A stretch of DNA of 64,000 bases from positions 2,434,001-2,498,000 of the forward strand of contig NZ_CP168900.1 of assembly GCF_041765605.1 (NCBI RefSeq), in the 5' to 3' direction. Below the pieces are notes generated by a model. It saw only the letters and a program-made list of their open reading frames with translations, ran no database searches and was not told the origin of the DNA. The position numbers were made by a program, and so were the translations under genes. Positions 1 to 14,386 of this stretch are shown here, one piece after another (position 1 is the first letter of the stretch; each line of letters begins with the position of its first letter). The stretch comes from Listeria monocytogenes. GTDB taxonomy: Bacteria; Bacillota; Bacilli; Lactobacillales; Listeriaceae.

Positions 1-1297
1 ACTTGTAGCGGAGGATCCTGATAGGAAAATCGTTGTTGTTTCTGCACCAGGTAAACGTTTCAAGGAAGATACAAAAGTGACTGACCTACTTATTGATTGC
101 GCGGCAAAGGCACTTCTCGGGGAAGATACGAGTGAATTGTTTGAATCTGTCATTGCAAGATATGCGGGGATAGCGCTAGATACAGGGATGAGCGACGAAA
201 TTATCAATCAAATTCGCGCAGATTTACAAGCGACTATCTCATCAGACAAAAGCGATCCTGATAAATTTTTAGATCGAATGAAAGCAAGTGGCGAAGATAA
301 TAACGCAAAATTAATCGCCGCTTACTTTAAATTTAAAGGCTTAAACGCCAATTATATTAATCCAAAAGATGCCGGTTTACTTGTGACAAATGAACATGCT
401 AGCGCGCAAGTTTTACCAGAATCTTATGATCGTTTGTTTGCACTTCGAGAAAGAGAAGGCATTATTGTTTTCCCAGGATTTTTCGGTTATACGAAAGACG
501 GTGAAATTAGCACGTTTTCTAGAAGTGGCTCTGATATTACTGGAGCGATTGTGGCAAACGGCGCCCAAGCCGAGTTATACGAGAACTTTACGGATGTGGA
601 TGCAGTCTACGCAGTCAATCCCGCTATCGTGAAAAATCCGAAGAAAGTTCTTGAACTCACTTACCGGGAAATGCGTGAACTTTCATATGCTGGCTTCTCT
701 GTTTTTCATGATGAAGCTTTAATTCCGGCTTTTCATGCGGGTATTCCGGTGCATATTAAAAATACGAACAATCCTGATTCTTGTGGTACGCGTGTCGTTC
801 ATGAACGCGAAAATAACAATGGTCCAGTCGTTGGAATTGCTAGTGATGACGGCTTTTGTAGCATTTATATTAGTAAATATTTGATGAACCGAGAAATCGG
901 CTTCGGACGGAAAGTGCTGCAAATTCTGGAAGATGCTGGGTTGAACTATGAACATATGCCTTCTGGGATTGATGATTTAACGATTATTATTCGCGAAAAT
1001 CAGTTTGGCGAGGATACCGAGCAGACAATTATGTCTCGTTTGAAAGAAGAATTGAACGCAGATCAAGTGATTATGCAACACGGGATTTCGCTGATTATGG
1101 TTGTTGGTGAGACCATGCGCCATAATGTCGGGATTACATCTCGTGCTTCAAAAGCTTTATCCGATGCGAAAGTAAATATTGAAATGATTAATCAAGGTTC
1201 TTCTGAGGTAAGCATTATGTTTGGCGTGAAGGAAGAGCAGGAAAATACTGCGGTTCGCGCACTATATAATGAATTCTTTTCAGAAGTCTTAGTCTAA
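1..1297 (+). CDS. Aspartokinase, N-terminus missing at window edge
   Basis: Aspartate kinase phosphorylates L-aspartate in the first step of the lysine, threonine, methionine and diaminopimelate pathway. The reading frame is open from base 2 with no start codon, so the gene begins before the window; a GTG at 77 is internal. The visible part carries the kinase-domain stretch FPGFFGYTKDGEISTFSRSG followed by a C-terminal pair of ACT-like regulatory segments (for example GETMRHNVGITSRASKAL and NIEMINQGSSEVSIMFGV). A symmetrical terminator follows directly. The family is secure. Which isozyme it is, and which amino acid inhibits it, cannot be told from this fragment. Confidence 0.93.
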   Translation, partial: LVAEDPDRKIVVVSAPGKRFKEDTKVTDLLIDCAAKALLGEDTSELFESVIARYAGIALDTGMSDEIINQIRADLQATISSDKSDPDKFLDRMKASGEDNNAKLIAAYFKFKGLNANYINPKDAGLLVTNEHASAQVLPESYDRLFALREREGIIVFPGFFGYTKDGEISTFSRSGSDITGAIVANGAQAELYENFTDVDAVYAVNPAIVKNPKKVLELTYREMRELSYAGFSVFHDEALIPAFHAGIPVHIKNTNNPDSCGTRVVHERENNNGPVVGIASDDGFCSIYISKYLMNREIGFGRKVLQILEDAGLNYEHMPSGIDDLTIIIRENQFGEDTEQTIMSRLKEELNADQVIMQHGISLIMVVGETMRHNVGITSRASKALSDAKVNIEMINQGSSEVSIMFGVKEEQENTAVRALYNEFFSEVLV

Positions 1298-1300
1298 AAA

Positions 1301-1338
1301 AAACAAGTTTTTCATCAATAAGGATGAAAAACTTGTTT
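1301..1338. terminator. Bidirectional intrinsic terminator after aspartokinase
   Basis: A perfect 16-bp stem (1301-1316 with 1323-1338) has a 6-base loop and A/T tracts on both sides. It sits between the convergent aspartokinase and the minus-strand gene ending at 1343, so it can serve both. Confidence 0.85.
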
Positions 1339-1342
1339 TATA

Positions 1343-1735
1343 TTATTTAGTCACTTCTTCTAATTGATAGTCTTTGGCAATTATGTCAATAATATAATCA
1401 TAAGTGCTAACGCGGTAATGCTTAAAATCTTGAACGTTATAGTCATCTCTTATTTTCACTCGTTCATTGATTAAATCAGAATGCTGTATCTGTTCAAAAT
1501 TGCTCTGACTTGTTAACCAACTAGTACTCCATTTGCTTTTTTCGTATGTGTCAAGTTCGGTGGATGAGTGGAAAATAAACCCGTTAAAAATCATCTTTAG
1601 GAACATGCTTTCTTCAAGGTCTACTTCTATAGATAGTGTGAGTTGGTCAAGAGTTTGGTTTAAGCTGATAAGCCATATTTGGTCTCTGCCGTAAATTAGT
1701 TGGTTGTTGATTTTTATTGGGTGGGATGTTTCCAC
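1343..1735 (-). CDS. Hypothetical protein, 130 aa
   Basis: I do not recognise this family. The start is GTG at 1735, with GAAAGGAA about 10 bases upstream. The product is soluble, with no signal peptide or membrane helix, and alternates hydrophobic and acidic stretches; a central segment reads ESMFLKMIFNGFIFHS and the C-terminus is charged. The size and mixed beta-like composition would fit a small stand-alone domain such as an immunity or housekeeping protein, but no motif supports a function. It converges with aspartokinase across a shared terminator. Its base composition looks like ordinary Listeria DNA, unlike the AT-rich gene upstream of it. Confidence 0.7.
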   Translation of the reverse strand: METSHPIKINNQLIYGRDQIWLISLNQTLDQLTLSIEVDLEESMFLKMIFNGFIFHSSTELDTYEKSKWSTSWLTSQSNFEQIQHSDLINERVKIRDDYNVQDFKHYRVSTYDYIIDIIAKDYQLEEVTK

Positions 1736-1809
1736 AGATATACAATTCCTTTCGACGAGTAACTTACCTATTTTTACTACTATTCACTCTTTGAGCAGCT
1801 TTATTCACT

Positions 1810-1844
1810 AAGGTATTTTCCCCATAAATAATAAAAAATACCTT
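1810..1844. terminator. Hairpin downstream of the reverse transcriptase
   Basis: AAGGTATTTT at 1810-1819 pairs with AAAATACCTT at 1835-1844 around a 15-base AT loop. It lies just past the reverse transcriptase stop codon. There is no clear U-run on the minus strand after it, so it may be a weak terminator or a 3' stabilising hairpin. Confidence 0.5.
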
Positions 1845-1848
1845 TAAG

Positions 1849-3189
1849 TTAAATCTTAGTATGTATTTTATAACCTAGCATCTTTTCGATTTTCTTTTTT
1901 CGATTTTTTAGTTGATTCATTATTAAATTATTTGTATTTGGAGATATTTCATCAAATTTCTTTTGAGCTCTTTTTGCATATGAAATAAAGTTACCGTGAT
2001 TATTATAATTCTTTCCTAAATCTGTACACAATCCATAAATTTTTTTCTTATAAGGTAAATCAGTCAATTCTTTTTTTACTTTTACTTTCTGAGCAAACTT
2101 TATAAGTTTTTTTGCATTTCGGTAAAATTTATACGGACTCTTCCCTCTCATTTTAACTGTAGTGCCATCAAAAACGAAACCTAAATAATCTAAATGGCTT
2201 ACTTCATTGCTAATTATGTCAAAAATTTTATCATTCTCGTATAAATACAATCCTGTTTTATCTTTATGCAACTCTATTTTATATTCCGAAGCTACCCTTC
2301 TTGTATCAGTTTCAATCCTTCTAATTTTTTGCTCATTTACTATATCGCTTTTAGGGATAACTAGTATAAAATCATCTGAGTATCTTCTATATATCCCAGA
2401 AAATTCGTCGGCAATTTCTTTTAACTTCAAATCAAATTCCGATGCATATATATTTGCAAACACTGCGCTGATAGCACTTCCTTGAGGTATACCAAATTTA
2501 TTTTTATTATATAAAGTTTTGTTATCTTTTTGAAACTCTCTAAATTTAGAAATATTCTCAAAATAACTTTTTTTATTAGAGCTTTTGATACTTTCATCAC
2601 TTCCATATTTCTCATTCAAAAAACTTTTTTCATAATATCCATATTTAGTTATTGAACGAAACACATTAAACCAATCTTTTGACAGTCTTGGCTGATTCAA
2701 TACTTCCGCTAAATGTTTTTTTAGTAATTCGTGATTTATTTTATCAAAGTAGTTAGTGAAATCTCCAACTAATACATAAGCTTTCTTATACTTAACTGCT
2801 TGATTAATGATTTCGGCGGCAAAATCAATGTTAGATTTCCCTACTTTATTGTTTCGATATGCAGATACACAATCATCTATATCTTTTTCTATGCAAAATT
2901 CATTGTAAAAATCCTTGTTCAACATTTCTGCATAATATTTGTAAATAAAGTTATCCATATGTCCAGCATACATAATTACTCTATTTTTAGGCTTAATTGG
3001 CCGGTTGTTAAACTCTGGATTTTTTTCTTCTATTCTTTTTTCGAAAGACAATACATAACGTATTAACGGCAAAAAGCTATGTTTTCCAATCTTCGAACGA
3101 TTGGTTACATAGCTTTCTACATTTTCAATTTTAACTCTATGGTCAAAGTGCAAATAATTTTTTGTTTTATATTTTGTTGAATCTAGCAT
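1849..3189 (-). CDS. Solitary reverse transcriptase, candidate anti-phage (DRT/unknown-group) type
   Basis: A 446-residue RNA-directed DNA polymerase. Motif A is DFTNYFD at residues 143-149, motif B is GIPQGSA at 233-239, and motif C is YSDD at 270-273; the catalytic aspartates D143, D272 and D273 are present. A further block, YLGFVFDG, lies near residue 335, followed by a basic C-terminal helical region. No maturase X or endonuclease domain is visible and there is no neighbouring cas or integrase gene. The layout (single RT, about 450 aa, long structured leader) resembles defence-associated reverse transcriptases such as DRT2 or DRT9, or Abi-type enzymes, rather than group II intron proteins; the exact class is my inference and is not settled. 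The DNA is markedly AT-rich (about 29% GC in two hand-counted 60-base stretches, against about 40% in mrpA), which suggests acquisition. The ribosome binding site is weak (GGCG, about 13 bases upstream). Confidence 0.85.
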   Translation of the reverse strand: MLDSTKYKTKNYLHFDHRVKIENVESYVTNRSKIGKHSFLPLIRYVLSFEKRIEEKNPEFNNRPIKPKNRVIMYAGHMDNFIYKYYAEMLNKDFYNEFCIEKDIDDCVSAYRNNKVGKSNIDFAAEIINQAVKYKKAYVLVGDFTNYFDKINHELLKKHLAEVLNQPRLSKDWFNVFRSITKYGYYEKSFLNEKYGSDESIKSSNKKSYFENISKFREFQKDNKTLYNKNKFGIPQGSAISAVFANIYASEFDLKLKEIADEFSGIYRRYSDDFILVIPKSDIVNEQKIRRIETDTRRVASEYKIELHKDKTGLYLYENDKIFDIISNEVSHLDYLGFVFDGTTVKMRGKSPYKFYRNAKKLIKFAQKVKVKKELTDLPYKKKIYGLCTDLGKNYNNHGNFISYAKRAQKKFDEISPNTNNLIMNQLKNRKKKIEKMLGYKIHTKI

Positions 3190-3640
3190 CTTAAATTCAC
3201 GCCTTTTTTGGGAGCGGAAAGGGACAATAAGTTCGACACTTAATTAAAATCCCTTTCTGCGTCTCTTATAGGTCAATATTTCCATACCTATGACCATTTA
3301 ATGTATAGAAAGTCGAATGATTTAACTTATATGCTACAATGTAGTAAACGATAACTTGAAAGGAACTATATGTATGAAACTTATAATTACCTTAATTACC
3401 ATCTTATCAAACTGGTTAATTCGAGAATTGTTAATGATTCTTGAAGTTAACTTAAAGCAAATCTTAACCGACAAAGTCGATAAAATATTACTTGACAGTT
3501 TGAAACATTATATTCTGTATTCTATAAATACAGGCACGTTAATTTTATCACAAAACAAACATTTTTTAAAGAAAATAATACATATAAACTTCAATTATTT
3601 ATTCCATACTTTAAATAAATTTACATTCCCCATGCAAAAA
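3190..3640 (-). ncRNA. Structured leader upstream of the reverse transcriptase, candidate template/guide ncRNA
   Basis: About 450 bases without a convincing gene precede the RT. Read on the minus strand, two hairpins sit next to the start codon. One pairs GAAAGGGA (3249-3256) with TCCCTTTC (3217-3224), extended outward by GC/GC pairs, with a loop of about 25 bases. The other pairs ATAGGT (3286-3291) with ACCTAT (3268-3273). Neither is followed by a U-run, so they are not terminators. A possible promoter further upstream (TTTAAA, 17 bases, TAAAAT, near 3542-3570) would give a transcript of about 350 bases before the RT. DRT2, DRT9 and retron systems carry an upstream structured ncRNA as template. 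That this one does so is inference, and its ends are unknown. Confidence 0.4.
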
Positions 3641-3663
3641 GAGCACTTTCATAGAAAGTGCTC
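3641..3663 (-). terminator. Intrinsic terminator of the cyclophilin gene
   Basis: GAGCACTTTC pairs with GAAAGTGCTC around an ATA loop, followed on the minus strand by TTTTT. It lies 9 bases after the ppiB stop codon. Confidence 0.85.
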
Positions 3664-3671
3664 TTCATTCA

Positions 3672-4256
3672 TTATTTAATATTAATCTTCTCAATCACAA
3701 CATCATTCACTGGTTTATCTTGCATGCCAGTTGGTAGGTTGGCGATTTCGTCTACTACGTCCATGCCTTCGATTACGTGACCGAAAACTGTGTGGCGGCC
3801 GTCTAACCATGGTGTTCCGCCTTGTTTGTATGCTTCGATAATTTCTACTGGGAAGCCAGCTTGTTCCATTTGACCAAGCATGTCAGCAGGCATATCTGGT
3901 TTTTGAACGATGAAGAATTGGCTGCCGTTTGTGTTTGGACCAGCGTTTGCCATGGATAAAGCTCCGCGTAAGTTGAAAGCTTCTGTAGAGAATTCATCTT
4001 CAAAAGATTCGCCCCAAATACTTTCGCCACCAGTACCGCGGCCGTCTGGGTCGCCACCTTGGATCATGAATTCAGGAATAACACGGTGGAAAATAAGTCC
4101 ATCATAGTAGCCGTTTTTGGAATGTGTAACAAAGTTTTCTACTGTTTTTGGTGCAATTTCAGGGAACAATTTGATGCGAATAGTTCCTCGGTTTGTAATC
4201 ATTTCTGCTTCAATTTCGTTAGGTGCCACTTCTTTTGATAATTGTGGGTAAGTCAT
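3672..4256 (-). CDS. ppiB: Cyclophilin-type peptidyl-prolyl cis-trans isomerase
   Basis: Cytoplasmic PpiB catalyses cis-trans isomerisation of prolyl bonds during protein folding. The 194-residue protein shows the cyclophilin signature: [15 protein letters not shown] with the catalytic Arg, then [19 protein letters not shown], and [14 protein letters not shown] near the C-terminus. There is no signal peptide, so it is the intracellular form. The start is ATG at 4256, with AGAAGGAG upstream. It is transcribed alone toward the reverse transcriptase and ends in its own terminator. The family is certain; its specific clients are not known from sequence. Confidence 0.96.
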
Positions 4257-4295
4257 ATTGTAAAAACTCCTTCTTTTGTTTTAATTTATTGTTTA

Positions 4296-4391
4296 CTAAC
4301 GTAGCCAAATAATAAGTAAATTAACAACGACAGCAATCAGATACAGTACTAGTATAACAGCTGAAACCCAAATGACAATTTTTTTAACCAA
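4296..4391 (-). CDS. Putative 31-aa single-pass membrane peptide
   Basis: A TTG start at 4391 is preceded by GAAGGA with about 9 bases of spacing and opens a 31-codon frame ending in TAG. The product starts MVKKIVIWV, continues as one uninterrupted hydrophobic helix of about 22 residues, and ends WLR. The basic N-terminus followed by a helix would place the C-terminus outside. It lies 40 bases upstream of ppiB on the same strand. No homolog is recognised. The SD, the start and the amphipathic composition support it, but its length leaves chance possible. Confidence 0.45.
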   Translation of the reverse strand: MVKKIVIWVSAVILVLYLIAVVVNLLIIWLR

Positions 4392-4487
4392 AAATGCACA
4401 TCCTTCACTTTATTTTTCATTCGCTATCTTTTATTCTATAATGAAAAGGACAGTTTTAACAATAATACGAATAGAGATGATTCTTTT

Positions 4488-5699
4488 ATGACAACTCGAA
4501 CACGGAATTTGTACATCTTAATGCTGGCAAACCTGTTGATGTCAGCCAGTATGACAATGATTATGCCGTTTTTATCTCTCTACATCGAAACATTTGGTGA
4601 TTACAGCAATGCCTATGTTCAAAGATGGGCCGGCTATATTTTTGGCGTAACTTTTTTAATTGCCTTTATTTTCTCGCCGATTTGGGGACGTATTGGTGAT
4701 AAGCACGGTTATAAAGGAATTTTGATTTTAACTTCGGTCGGTTTATCGGTTTGTATTTTTTTGATGGGATTTGCGCATTCTGTCACTTACTTACTGATTT
4801 TACGGATTTTTATGGGGGTTGTTACTGGTTTTATTGGTGTTAGTAATGCCTTTATTGCACGGCAAACTCCTCGTAATGAAGCTGGGAAAATTCTCGGTAC
4901 TTTGCAACTCGGAGGCGTGACTGGGATGCTGTTTGGTCCTCTGATTGGCGGCGCGATGGCGGATTTATTTGGCTTTAAAGATACCTTTACGATTACCGGG
5001 ATTGCGATGATGGTTGCGGCTTTGATTGTCGCTTTTGGTGTAAAGGAAATCCGTACAGAAGAACAAAAAGAAGCTGCCAAGGTCGTTTATTCTCGTCGTG
5101 CAGTTTTAAAACAAATTTTTACGCTACGAGTTCTATTCACGGTGATGGTTATTACTGCACTCATCCAAATTGCGAACTTTAGTGTTCAACCGTTGCTTGC
5201 GCTTTATGTAGGAGATATGACGCAATCAGACAATATTGCTTTCTTGTCAGGGTTGGCGTTTTCTGCGACGGGATTCGGGAACTTGGTGATGACGCGAAAA
5301 TGGGGACAGCTTGGAGACAAATATGGGTATGAGAAAATACTGAATATCTTGTTGATTATGGCGGCTGTTTTTGTTATTCCACAGGCATTCGCGACGAATC
5401 TTTGGGTCTTTATCTTCTTCCGCTTTTTATTCGGGATTGCGATTGGTGGTATGGTGCCATGTACGACAGCTTATATTCGGCTTGCGGCGCCTGGTGTTAT
5501 GCAAGGCGAAATGCTTGGCTATAATCAAAGTGCTCGCTTTTTAGGAAATGTTATCGGACCAATCCTCGGTGGGACGCTCGCTGGTTTCACAGGAATTCCG
5601 AGTGTGTTCTTATTTATGAGTTTTATGTTCCTCGTGGCATTTTTCATTTTGCTTTATGCCCTTCATTCCGACCGAAAACGGCATGTGAACGTGGATTGA
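4488..5699 (+). CDS. MFS multidrug-efflux-type transporter
   Basis: A 403-residue major facilitator superfamily protein with about 12 membrane helices. The loop between helices 2 and 3 carries the MFS motif GRIGDKHGYK, repeated in degenerate form in the second half as GQLGDKYGYE. Helix 5 carries the antiporter-type segment LGGVTGMLFGPLIGG, which points to drug:H+ antiport of the Bmr/NorA/PmrA class. The substrate cannot be deduced. It is monocistronic, starts at ATG 4488 with a weak ribosome binding site, and is closed by a strong terminator. Confidence 0.88.
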   Translation: MTTRTRNLYILMLANLLMSASMTMIMPFLSLYIETFGDYSNAYVQRWAGYIFGVTFLIAFIFSPIWGRIGDKHGYKGILILTSVGLSVCIFLMGFAHSVTYLLILRIFMGVVTGFIGVSNAFIARQTPRNEAGKILGTLQLGGVTGMLFGPLIGGAMADLFGFKDTFTITGIAMMVAALIVAFGVKEIRTEEQKEAAKVVYSRRAVLKQIFTLRVLFTVMVITALIQIANFSVQPLLALYVGDMTQSDNIAFLSGLAFSATGFGNLVMTRKWGQLGDKYGYEKILNILLIMAAVFVIPQAFATNLWVFIFFRFLFGIAIGGMVPCTTAYIRLAAPGVMQGEMLGYNQSARFLGNVIGPILGGTLAGFTGIPSVFLFMSFMFLVAFFILLYALHSDRKRHVNVD

Positions 5700-5704
5700 A
5701 TTTG

Positions 5705-5732
5705 ACAAACCTAAGTTTTTTCTTAGGTTTGT
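5705..5732 (+). terminator. Intrinsic terminator after the MFS gene
   Basis: ACAAACCTAAG pairs with CTTAGGTTTGT around a T-rich loop, followed by a run of T. Confidence 0.9.
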
Positions 5733-5823
5733 TTTTTTGTTCTTCCTATTAAATTGTTTTTTAAATTTCGGTAAATTGATTTATAAAGTTAAGTTTCCTG
5801 CCTTTTTTTCAGATAAAAAAGTA

Positions 5824-5832
5824 TGTTATAAT
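5824..5832 (+). promoter_or_regulatory. Extended -10 promoter of the mrp operon
   Basis: TGTTATAAT is a perfect extended -10 element; no good -35 is visible. The predicted transcript start near 5839 leaves a leader of about 205 bases before mrpA. The leader contains the hairpin AAGTAC (5846-5851) with GTACTT (about 5865-5870). No ORF with an SD was found in the rest of the 5734-6043 gap. Confidence 0.55.
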
Positions 5833-6043
5833 AAAAAATATAAAAAGTACGGCGTTTATTTGGGTACTTCGTGAATAGTAAGGTTGTTGAAATTTGATGA
5901 GTTAGCACGGTTTTCTAAAATTTTAGTTATAACTATGTTTCATTAAATGTAAGTACTTGCTTAAAAAATAATGATTTCCTGTTTTTATTTTCACATTTCC
6001 AGGATGAGTTTCCGTATAAAAATTCTTCGAGGAGGAGCCGATT

Positions 6044-13052: not shown

Positions 13053-13080
13053 AAAAGTTGACTCCTTGTAGTCAACTTTT
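13053..13080 (+). terminator. Intrinsic terminator after the YuiD-type gene
   Basis: An 11-bp perfect stem, AAAAGTTGACT with AGTCAACTTTT, is followed by more T residues. It shows that the open frame of the next gene beginning at 13058 is not its true start. Confidence 0.9.
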
Positions 13081-13123
13081 TTTGTTTGTCGTTAGTTTAC
13101 AGCTATATGTTAAAGGGAAAATC

Positions 13124-14386
13124 ATGTTATCAACAGATTTTACAAAGGGGCTGGCTTCGGTGAAAAAGGTAACACTCGTTTTTAGCGTTTATACATTTAT
13201 TCTAGGTATCTTAGTGGGAGTTATTGCTGCTTTATTTTTAGCAATGGTTCACTTCGCCACGACGTTTTTGTGGGATTATCTTCCTAATCAGTTTGATTTT
13301 TCATGGTATTATCCTCTACTAGTCGGTTTGATTGGGAGTTTTTTTGTAGGAATGGTTCAGCTGAAATTTGGTGACTATCCGCGGTCGATGCATGACAATG
13401 TTGCTGAGGCGAAGAAAACTGGACGGATGGAGTATCGCAAAGTTCTGCTTCCTACGATACTTAGCGCTTGGATTATTTTAACATTTGGGGCGAGCGTTGG
13501 TCCGGAAGCTGCTTTGATTGGTATTGTTGGTGGTGCCACGACTTGGATTATTGATCATCTAAAACTATCTATGGCGCATAAAGAAGAACTTGTTAGTTTG
13601 AGTGTTGGCGCGATTATTTCCAGTATTTTCCACGCTCCGTTTAGCGGACTAGCCGAGGAAATTGATGAAAGTAGTCAAGCGAAGAAAATTCCTAAAAACT
13701 CTAAATTAGTGTTATCGCTTCTTATTTCTTTTAGCGCACTCGGATCTTTCCTTTGGCTGAAATCCTTTTTAAAAATGCCTGCGAGTATTTTTGCGATTCG
13801 GCTACCTGACATGGGTTGGTCTTGGTGGTTTATTTTACTTTTTATTCCTATGATTATTCTAGGATGGCTCTTTAGTGTTTATTTCCAGCAATTGCAAGTC
13901 TATATCGCGAAGGCAGCTTCTGTCATTAAAAATAAAATGGTCGCGGCGGTTATTGGCGGTTTGAGCATTGGTTTATTTGGGATAATTTCTTCCTTCATGT
14001 TATTTTCTGGTGAGCATCAGCTGATTGAATTGACAACAACTGTCCAAAATTATTCGATTCCTTTTTTACTTATTATCGCCTTGTTAAAACCTGTTTTGGT
14101 CGCTATTTGTTTAGCAACGGGCTGGAATGGCGGTGCAATTTTCCCGGCGATTTTTACTAGTACGATTATGGGGTACATAGCAACATTTTGGATGGATGGA
14201 TCAACTGGTTTTCTCATTACGGTTTTCGTCACCGCTTGTTGTACGAAAATTGTTGGAAAACCCGTTCTTACCGCATCCATTTTACTTTTCATTTTCCCGC
14301 TACAATTTTTCCCGTTTATTCTGTTGACGGCGTTTATTGTGAATAAAAATTGGTGGGTTAGCATCAAGAAAATTATACGAGCATAA
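13124..14386 (+). CDS. ClC-family chloride channel/transporter-like protein
   Basis: A polytopic membrane protein of about 420 residues with ClC features. GASVGPEAALIGIVGG corresponds to the second anion-binding motif, where Gly-Pro-Glu replaces the usual Arg-Glu-Gly-Pro. GWNGGAIFPAIF corresponds to the GxFxP motif. ATG 13124 follows AAAGGGA; a GTG at 13160 behind AAAGGGG is an alternative. The open frame extends back to 13058 but that start lies inside the previous terminator. Ion selectivity is uncertain because the selectivity motifs are atypical. Monocistronic. Confidence 0.82.
   Translation: MLSTDFTKGLASVKKVTLVFSVYTFILGILVGVIAALFLAMVHFATTFLWDYLPNQFDFSWYYPLLVGLIGSFFVGMVQLKFGDYPRSMHDNVAEAKKTGRMEYRKVLLPTILSAWIILTFGASVGPEAALIGIVGGATTWIIDHLKLSMAHKEELVSLSVGAIISSIFHAPFSGLAEEIDESSQAKKIPKNSKLVLSLLISFSALGSFLWLKSFLKMPASIFAIRLPDMGWSWWFILLFIPMIILGWLFSVYFQQLQVYIAKAASVIKNKMVAAVIGGLSIGLFGIISSFMLFSGEHQLIELTTTVQNYSIPFLLIIALLKPVLVAICLATGWNGGAIFPAIFTSTIMGYIATFWMDGSTGFLITVFVTACCTKIVGKPVLTASILLFIFPLQFFPFILLTAFIVNKNWWVSIKKIIRA

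What the first reader, a model, noticed from the sequence alone, without database searches (positions are those of the whole stretch)
1849..3189. Solitary AT-rich reverse transcriptase between a conserved gene and ppiB
An intact RT (motifs DFTNYFD, GIPQGSA, YSDD) sits alone between core genes, without integrase, maturase X domain, intron ends or cas genes. Its DNA is about 29% GC in sampled stretches, against about 40% nearby. Solitary RTs of this size in bacteria are mainly anti-phage enzymes (DRT, Abi) or retrons. This could be a Listeria DRT-type defence system, possibly of an undescribed subgroup.
Basis: partly seen in the sequence, partly recalled or inferred. Interest (0 to 1): 0.88.

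Follow-up and report, generated by a model that had tools for sequence, protein, structure and literature searches.

The report
Anti-phage reverse transcriptase with hidden gene
A lone-looking reverse transcriptase gene in Listeria is a relative of the bacterial DRT2 virus-defence enzyme, and the non-coding stretch beside it appears to hide a gene that can exist only after the enzyme copies that stretch into repeats end to end; it seems to join the repeats with a different three-letter signal from the one described so far.

Summary
The RT is real, intact and AT-rich. It is not solitary and not an undescribed RT subgroup: it is a DRT2 (UG2) enzyme (PADLOC Drt2 E 2.4e-130; best fold match 9c0i, KpDRT2, TM 0.77). 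Its partner is a predicted ~330-nt structured RNA upstream (about 3205-3535, minus strand) with the KpDRT2 layout: 5' handle, template, pseudoknot, tower.

The published ACA/ACA jump motif was not found. In its place are two GUU copies exactly 180 nt apart. Copying this template head to tail, as KpDRT2 does, would put TTGACA 17 bp from TACAAT across each junction and open an endless frame of 60 codons per repeat with Shine-Dalgarno and ATG. Among 6736 GUU pairs in the 64-kb window this combination occurs once, and in 1 of 3000 shuffles of the upstream region.

The same GUU layout, units 135-192 nt in multiples of three, was accepted in 14 other loci of the class; 19 of 34 DRT2-like loci scanned lack it. 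Other matched words with perfect promoters occur elsewhere (ACA, GUAU). A new variant of a known kind.

The parts
1849..3189 (-). DRT2-type reverse transcriptase, 446 aa, catalytic D143/D272/D273
3205..3535 (-). predicted DRT2-like ncRNA (ends approximate): 5' handle, template, pseudoknot, tower
   Evidence: MFE -78.3 kcal/mol, z -5.6; covariation in 9 loci; ends inferred from the promoter-like site and from homologs
3542..3570 (-). promoter-like site for ncRNA and RT: TTTAAA-17-TAAAAT with TG before the -10 (9 of 12)
   Evidence: consensus match only, the region has 21 such sites against 12.6 expected
3515..3533 (-). 5' handle hairpin of the ncRNA
   Evidence: (helix 1: 3 of 4 pairs with a change on both sides)
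3504..3506 (-). GUU-1: predicted upstream jump motif, first 3 nt of the template
3324..3326 (-). GUU-2: predicted landing motif, exactly 180 nt from GUU-1
3327..3506 (+). predicted neo repeat unit, 180 bp = 60 codons, antisense to the ncRNA; stop-free when concatenated
3492..3497 (+). TTGACA, -35 half of the junction promoter
3335..3340 (+). TACAAT (TG one base before it), -10 half of the junction promoter; 17 bp from the -35 only across a repeat junction
3358..3376 (+). Shine-Dalgarno-like GAAAGGA (3358-3364) and ATG (3374-3376) of neo
3271..3308 (-). H-type pseudoknot 3' of GUU-2 (CUAUAC/GUAUGG interleaved with GGUCA/UGACC)
3216..3257 (-). 3' long hairpin, tower-like
   Evidence: (helices 6, 7)
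1740..3636 (.). approximate extent of the variable cassette between the 130-aa ORF and the ppiB terminator
   Evidence: BLAST of relatives lacking it; exact ends not defined

Best explanation
It is a chromosomal DRT2 abortive-infection system with a GUU-type template-jump signal. Inferred course: one promoter makes the ncRNA and the RT mRNA; the RT binds the pseudoknot and tower of the ncRNA; on phage infection it copies the 180-nt template up to GUU-1; the 3' end of the cDNA (AAC) re-pairs with GUU-2 and copying starts again, giving tandem 180-bp repeats; second-strand synthesis makes dsDNA; each junction creates a TTGACA-17-TACAAT promoter; transcripts carry an endless frame with its own Shine-Dalgarno and ATG, translated into a hydrophobic, predicted-helical Neo of 60-aa repeats that stops growth and so phage spread. 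Shown here in silico: RT class, ncRNA structure, GUU pair, junction promoter, frame closure, conservation in part of the family, absence from most genomes of the genus searched. Taken over from KpnDRT2: RNP binding, priming, jumping, phage trigger, second strand, toxicity.
For: RT class: PADLOC Drt2 433.9 bits, best model of another name 73.4 (generic RT), then Drt9 67; KpDRT2 chains E 3.6e-48; AF2 model best PDB match 9c0i E 2.0e-30, TM 0.77 by query length, next-ranked DRT9 0.51. Positive control: in L066, a viral contig whose RT is 63% identical to KpDRT2, the same scan ranks first an ACA pair, 117 nt, perfect promoter, open frame, as published (117 nt most common among 42 Kp relatives; PMC12039810). 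Target: one search scanned 34 loci for GUU pairs with an exact 17-bp spacer and no frame requirement; at <=2 promoter mismatches 14 loci had a pair, and in 12 of the 14 the best pair was a multiple of three with an open concatemer. L007 fits with 3 mismatches, L011 with an 18-bp spacer, L013 with a poor -35: 15 of 34 accepted, units 135-192 nt. Controls: 6736 GUU pairs on both strands of the window give 2 junction promoters at <=1 mismatch, 1 with an open concatemer, this one; shuffles 1 of 3000. Template length mod 3 is 0 in the 15 accepted units, scaffold length mod 3 is mixed (6 zero, 6 one, 3 two). ncRNA: 20 of 41 pairs change on both sides against 9.9 +/- 2.0 in shuffles; 89.7% of cells paired against 33-46% when slid; pseudoknot 8 of 11 pairs against 3.0 +/- 1.2. 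Past the unit the genomic antisense frame runs on 4 to 40 codons or more (40 was the script's limit, reached in 2 of 15) with no shared stop, so a stand-alone ORF is unlikely.
Against: No experiment. NCBIfam Drt2 score 324.9 is under its curated 390. ACA-1/ACA-2, conserved in KpnDRT2 relatives, were not found. 19 of 34 loci scanned have no accepted GUU unit, 14 of them from the same phylum (13 genome rows, 1 plasmid); the 15 were partly chosen with frame and promoter in view. At <=2 mismatches L061 and L029 gave pairs that are not multiples of three; L023 gave an open pair at 3 mismatches that I did not accept because L018, nearly identical upstream, lacks it. Chance units do occur: the same control run with ACA found one open unit at <=1 mismatch among 4612 pairs of the window (13924, 120 nt), away from the RT, so the evidence lies in position and conservation, not in one hit. 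At the looser level of 3 mismatches 0-7 of 300 shuffles per locus also give a unit. L012 lies in the same 99/98 clade with no unit found; L024, just outside that clade, fits an AUGA pair. Codon substitution is not conclusive: pN/pS 0.54-0.91 in 7 pairs, shifted frames 0.34-1.47. L026 uses another frame phase relative to GUU. The native promoter is only a consensus match.
Confidence: 0.86

Rival explanations
1. DRT2-family RT with a template-copying RNA, but the repeats do not encode Neo; the product acts as DNA or RNA, as in DRT9 poly-dA.
For: Related Class 2 DRTs act without coding (DRT9, PMC12483538 passages). The preprint allows alternative mechanisms in divergent DRT2 clades (PMC11100668). 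Codon-substitution signal is weak.
Against: Junction promoter, start signals, open frame and unit length in threes occur together in the accepted loci; accepted template lengths differ only by threes, scaffold lengths do not.
Confidence: 0.08
2. The antisense frame is an ordinary small gene or a chance ORF and the upstream RNA a leader of the RT gene; the RT acts otherwise.
For: In this genome the frame happens to run on to 3676 (117 codons). Chance units can be found elsewhere in the window with another triplet (ACA, 13924).
Against: The run-on is not conserved; the -35 lies downstream of the start codon, so the promoter works only across a repeat junction; the RNA structure covaries.
Confidence: 0.03
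3. Decayed or mobile retroelement RT (group II intron, retron).
For: NCBIfam group II maturase model at 76.8 bits; AT-rich, probably foreign DNA.
Against: Cut-off for that model is 300 bits; no Rfam match in 1-6000; ORF intact and catalytic residues invariant; Drt2 far ahead in profile and fold.
Confidence: 0.02

Closest known systems
KpnDRT2 (type 2 defence-associated RT, UG2; Neo), PDB 9c0i
   Same: RT family and fold; upstream ncRNA with 5' handle, template hairpin, pseudoknot and long 3' hairpin; two identical triplets bounding the template; split sigma-70-type promoter rejoined with 17 bp; stop-free frame, length in threes; hydrophobic repeat
   Different: GUU in place of ACA; 180-nt (60 aa) unit in place of 120 (40 aa); YSDD in place of YCDD; 27% identity in the fold alignment; no experiment
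DRT2 homologs of the Kp clade with 111-129 nt repeats (PMC12039810, parts 1-3 of 10 read)
   Same: same layout; L066 here reproduces it
   Different: ACA motif, shorter repeat
DRT9 (UG28)
   Same: Class 2 RT with ncRNA template
   Different: makes poly-dA, protein-primed, hexamer (PMC12483538 passages); second-ranked fold match only (TM 0.51)
DRT2 annotated in L. monocytogenes A2D10 (PMC12786058)
   Same: probably the same genus, DRT2 call by DefenseFinder
   Different: name in a table; ncRNA and neo not described in the passages seen; identity with this locus not checked

Membership tests
DRT2 (UG2) | RT belongs to the DRT2/UG2 family | tested here: met
   PADLOC Drt2 E 2.4e-130; fold 9c0i first. 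The NCBIfam equivalog cut-off itself is not reached (324.9 of 390)
DRT2 (UG2) | intact catalytic aspartates | tested here: met
   D143, D272, D273 invariant in 12 proteins
DRT2 (UG2) | structured, pseudoknotted ncRNA directly upstream | tested here: met
   (prediction with covariation; transcription not shown)
DRT2 (UG2) | two identical short motifs bounding the template | tested here: met
   GUU/GUU, 180 nt
KpnDRT2-type (ACA) subclade | the motif is ACA-1/ACA-2 | tested here: not met
   ACA pairs in the window's upstream region gave only an 87-nt open unit; with any triplet and the promoter required, GUU 180 nt ranks first. Filed as a DRT2 variant, not as Kp-type
DRT2 (UG2) | junction rebuilds a sigma-70-type promoter | tested here: met
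   TTGACA-17-TACAAT; activity not shown
DRT2 (UG2) | concatemer carries an endless frame with start signals | tested here: met
   180 nt, phase 2, Shine-Dalgarno and ATG
DRT2 (UG2) | alpha-helical Neo | tested here: inconclusive
   one repeat modelled as a single helix, pLDDT 80.7, pTM 0.43; the multi-repeat fold was not run
DRT2 (UG2) | phage-triggered rolling-circle reverse transcription and growth arrest | not testable with these tools
   needs experiment
Group II intron RT | intron RNA around the RT gene | tested here: not met
   no Rfam match in 1-6000
Retron | retron family RT above cut-off | tested here: not met
   St85 47.4 of 235 bits, Ec67 29.6 of 450; msr/msd not searched beyond Rfam

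The most novel reading that the evidence does not exclude
DRT2 template jumping is not tied to ACA: it needs only that the two ends of the template carry the same short word, and clades have drifted to different words (ACA in Kp relatives, GUU in many Bacilli, GUAU in three phage or viral-contig systems) while keeping junction promoter and frame. The Neo of Bacilli is then a distinct, mostly longer effector (units of 45-64 codons), and part of the unannotated DRT2 diversity can be read by searching for matched words with a rejoined promoter.
Probability: 0.74. Interest if true: 0.72.

Novelty: new variant of a known kind. Interest (0 to 1): 0.62.

Why it matters
Neo genes do not exist in the genome as such, so gene finders do not see them. 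A 2024 preprint annotated Neo for KpnDRT2 relatives but found divergent clades 'more challenging' and left open alternative mechanisms. The GUU rule supplies a ready prediction for part of that diversity: exact repeat unit, junction, promoter and protein. It also turns the jump model into a testable rule (match of the two words, not their sequence). I saw no description of a GUU motif or of a Listeria or Bacilli neo in the listings of library searches or in the parts of papers read; the final Science version of the preprint and the supplements were not available to me, so it may exist there.

Tried and rejected
ACA pairs in the window's upstream region: one open 87-nt unit only, not used. Generic 3-mer pairs with relaxed spacing give many in-frame-open pairs per locus, 60 of 357 in the window's, so only exact-spacer tests with controls were used for the counts. 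Codon-substitution (pN/pS) test: not conclusive. Pseudoknot search in L011, L025, L028 (more distant): 52, 37 and 34 of 60 shuffles as good; in L010 12 of 60. Viral-contig scan with the Listeria RT itself: none confirmed; with the family alignment: two loci. L058 (Photobacterium, inside the Kp clade) gave no ACA unit. Stand-alone antisense ORF, retron, intron: rejected as above. Rows dropped before the 34-locus count: duplicates L001, L002, L003, L032 removed; of its 36 entries L030 and L049 (pieces of the own and of the L057 genome) and L016 (167 nt upstream only) were left out and WIN added. L004, L066, L067 and L068 were not in that count. Only 120 of 510 homologs were listed.

Full report
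Observation. The ORF at 1849-3189 (-) is an intact 446-aa RT with the quoted motifs. Its DNA is 26-30% GC in 500-bp windows; windows starting at 1-1001 are 35-42% and those starting at 3501 or later 32-45%. Neighbours are an aspartate kinase, a 130-aa ORF with no Pfam match and a best NCBIfam E of 0.078, and ppiB (ppiB by reading, not by a family call). No Rfam family matches in window 1-6000.

What the RT is. PADLOC gives Drt2 twice, 433.9 and 279.6 bits; the best other models are a generic RT (73.4) and Drt9 (67) (best 25 of 45 families shown). NCBIfam Drt2 scores 324.9, under its cut-off of 390, which fits a divergent member. By sequence the only strong PDB relatives are KpDRT2 chains (E 3.6e-48). 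The AF2 model (12-sequence alignment, pLDDT 81.9) matches 9c0i, the KpDRT2 RT-ncRNA complex, at E 2.0e-30 and TM 0.77, with DRT9 next at 0.51. 510 homologs at E<=1e-20 were found; among the 120 listed those with an organism name are Listeria, Enterococcus, Staphylococcus, Bacillus, Solibacillus, Aerococcus and similar.

Distribution. 2 of 25 genomes of the genus carry it, the own one included, the other at 95% identity; 20 of 395 in the order at E<=1e-20. In the second carrier it sits at the same place (L057 aligns to window 1001-4700 at 92.5%). Of the 18 other genomes with a match to the left flank I fetched 7 without the RT. In 6 of these 7 the sequence before the cassette (the 130-aa ORF, or the end of the aspartate kinase in two) continues to the ppiB side with no more than about 60 nt between; the seventh (L054) lacks the ppiB side in the fetched stretch. 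So it is an accessory cassette of about 1.9 kb.

Literature used. Wilkinson et al. (PMC12039810, text parts 1-3 of 10 and a term search) and the Tang et al. preprint (PMC11100668, parts 1-4 of 8, term searches and outline) show that KpDRT2 copies a 120-nt ncRNA template into tandem repeats by jumping between two ACA triplets, that each junction rebuilds a sigma-70 promoter with 17-bp spacing, and that the endless frame neo makes a toxic repeat protein. The main texts do not hold the words Listeria, Firmicutes, Bacillota, Gram-positive or Staphylococcus. Tang et al. write that Neo annotation in divergent DRT2 clades 'was more challenging'. The NAR structure paper (PMC12596737, passages) has no Listeria or Firmicutes either. 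PMC12786058 (passages) lists DRT2 for L. monocytogenes A2D10 in a table. PMC12632851, PMC12483538 and PMC13213688 were seen in passages.

The hidden gene. On the plus strand upstream of the RT a frame is open from 3326 to 3676. It has a Shine-Dalgarno-like GAAAGGA at 3358 and ATG at 3374; TACAAT lies at 3335 and TTGACA at 3492. The two promoter halves are in the wrong order in the genome. If the template is repeated, a 17-bp spacer requires a unit of exactly 180 nt, a multiple of three. Two copies of AAC (GUU in the RNA) lie exactly 180 nt apart at 3324-3326 and 3504-3506. The concatemer of 3327-3506 has one open frame, 60 codons per repeat, hydrophobic (GRAVY 0.78).

Comparison. Aligned ncRNA regions of 9 loci keep TGTTT at the 5' edge of the template and AGTT (GGTT in L014) at the 3' edge. 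One search scanned 450 nt upstream of 34 DRT2-like RTs for GUU pairs with an exact 17-bp spacer and no demand on frame. At <=2 promoter mismatches 14 loci had a pair, and the best pair was a multiple of three with an open concatemer in 12: WIN 180, L057 177, L005 180, L008 180, L006 186, L009 186, L010 192, L014 192, L025 141, L028 135, L026 138, L027 153. The two exceptions are L061 (a plasmid copy, 191 nt) and L029 (218 nt). L007 (180) fits at 3 mismatches; L011 (192) with an 18-bp spacer; L013 (162) with a poor -35. That makes 15 of 34 accepted. The 19 others are 13 genome rows of the same phylum (L012, L015, L017-L024, L029, L064, L065), one Enterococcus plasmid copy (L061), two phage rows (L062, L063) and three plasmid rows from other phyla (L058, L059, L060); L023 shows an open pair at 3 mismatches that I do not accept.

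Controls. Positive: L066 (RT 63% to KpDRT2) gives ACA, 117 nt, perfect promoter, open, as the top hit. Negative: 6736 GUU pairs on both strands of the 64-kb window give 2 junction promoters at <=1 mismatch and one open concatemer, the one at 3327; at <=2 mismatches 15 and still that one. The same run with ACA (4612 pairs) gives one open chance unit at <=1 mismatch (13924, 120 nt, inside the ORF 13058-14386) and another at 2 (57087, 216 nt); so about one chance unit per triplet in 64 kb is possible, and the case rests on position beside the RT and on conservation. Dinucleotide shuffles of the window's upstream region: 1 of 3000 at <=1 mismatch. In 17 loci 300 shuffles each: 0 at <=1 mismatch, 0-1 at <=2, 0-7 at <=3. 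Accepted template lengths are 0 mod 3 in 15 of 15, while the scaffold between GUU-2 and the RT start is mixed (6, 6, 3). In the 7 pairs compared, shifted frames hold 5-12 stops where the neo frame has none. The antisense frame beyond the unit runs 4 to 40 codons or more (script limit 40, reached by WIN and L010) with no common end, against a stand-alone gene. The pN/pS test did not discriminate (0.54-0.91; shifted frames 0.34-1.47); this region is also under RNA-structure constraint.

RNA. The strand folds at -78.3 kcal/mol, z -5.6. In the 9-locus alignment 89.7% of cells pair, 20 of 41 pairs have changes on both sides (shuffles 9.9 +/- 2.0), and sliding the partners drops pairing to 33-46%; the structure came from the same alignment, which favours the unslid version. 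A helix joins the 5' flank with GUU-1 to the -10 region just before GUU-2, which would hold the two jump words near each other, much as the template hairpin reported for KpDRT2. An H-type pseudoknot sits about 18-57 nt after GUU-2. In 8 aligned loci 8 of 11 pairs change on both sides (shuffles 3.0 +/- 1.2), although by my reading three rows (WIN, L057, L005) are out of register by one in the second helix. By search it appears at nearly the same offsets in WIN, L005-L010, L014 and L013; in L057 the second helix agrees and the first was placed slightly elsewhere. Support against 60 shuffles in these ten is 0-12; L011, L025 and L028 are not better than shuffles.

Other clades. Three phage or viral-contig systems (L062, L063, L068) give perfect promoters with matched words that include GUAU and units of 132, 135 and 150 nt; 0 of 300 shuffles of each does so with any triplet. 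L059 has a UUGA pair, 144 nt, perfect hexamers at 16 bp. In an RT tree of 34 rows the GUU label needs 3 changes (shuffled mean 11.4) and GUAU one (98/97); 11 GUU rows and L012 form a 99/98 group; the deep split is weak (76/71). L012 and L058 lie among positives without a unit I could find, so the rule is not universal or these copies are decayed.

Neo protein. Nine single repeats align with 29-81% identity to the window's. One repeat is modelled as one long helix (pLDDT 80.7, pTM 0.43), compatible with the helical Neo reported for Kp but weak evidence.

Verdict. A DRT2 system with a GUU-type jump signal and a 60-codon neo repeat. Family and anatomy are well supported by computation; every biochemical and phage step is inferred from KpDRT2.

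Noticed in passing
L062, L063, L068: DRT2-like RTs on a Clostridioides phage record (HGP05), a faecal phage contig and a viral contig with matched words that include GUAU, units 132/135/150 nt and perfect TTGACA-17-TATAAT junction promoters.
   Followed up: partly
L059: Nitratidesulfovibrio plasmid DRT2: matched UUGA words 144 nt apart, perfect hexamers but a 16-bp spacer.
   Followed up: partly
L058: Photobacterium plasmid DRT2 inside the Kp clade has an ACA-1-like site but no clean ACA-2; either decayed or using another word. An annotated tyrosine recombinase lies beside it.
   Followed up: no
L024, L012: L024 fits an AUGA pair of 138 nt in place of GUU; L012, in the GUU clade, fits no convincing unit.
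   Followed up: partly
window 13924-14043: Chance unit in the control scan: ACA pair 120 nt apart with a one-mismatch junction promoter and open frame, inside a long ORF.
   Followed up: no
window 1343-1735 (-): 130-aa ORF without Pfam match beside the cassette; DNA similar to it is in five relatives (L050-L054) and missing from two (L055, L056).
   Followed up: no
window 3639-3665: Strong terminator-like hairpin at the end of ppiB, also matched in several relatives; it bounds the variable cassette.
   Followed up: no
window 1811-1845: Inverted repeat AAGGTATTTT/AAAATACCTT just after the RT stop, seen by eye, possible end signal of the RT transcript; not called by the terminator scan.
   Followed up: no
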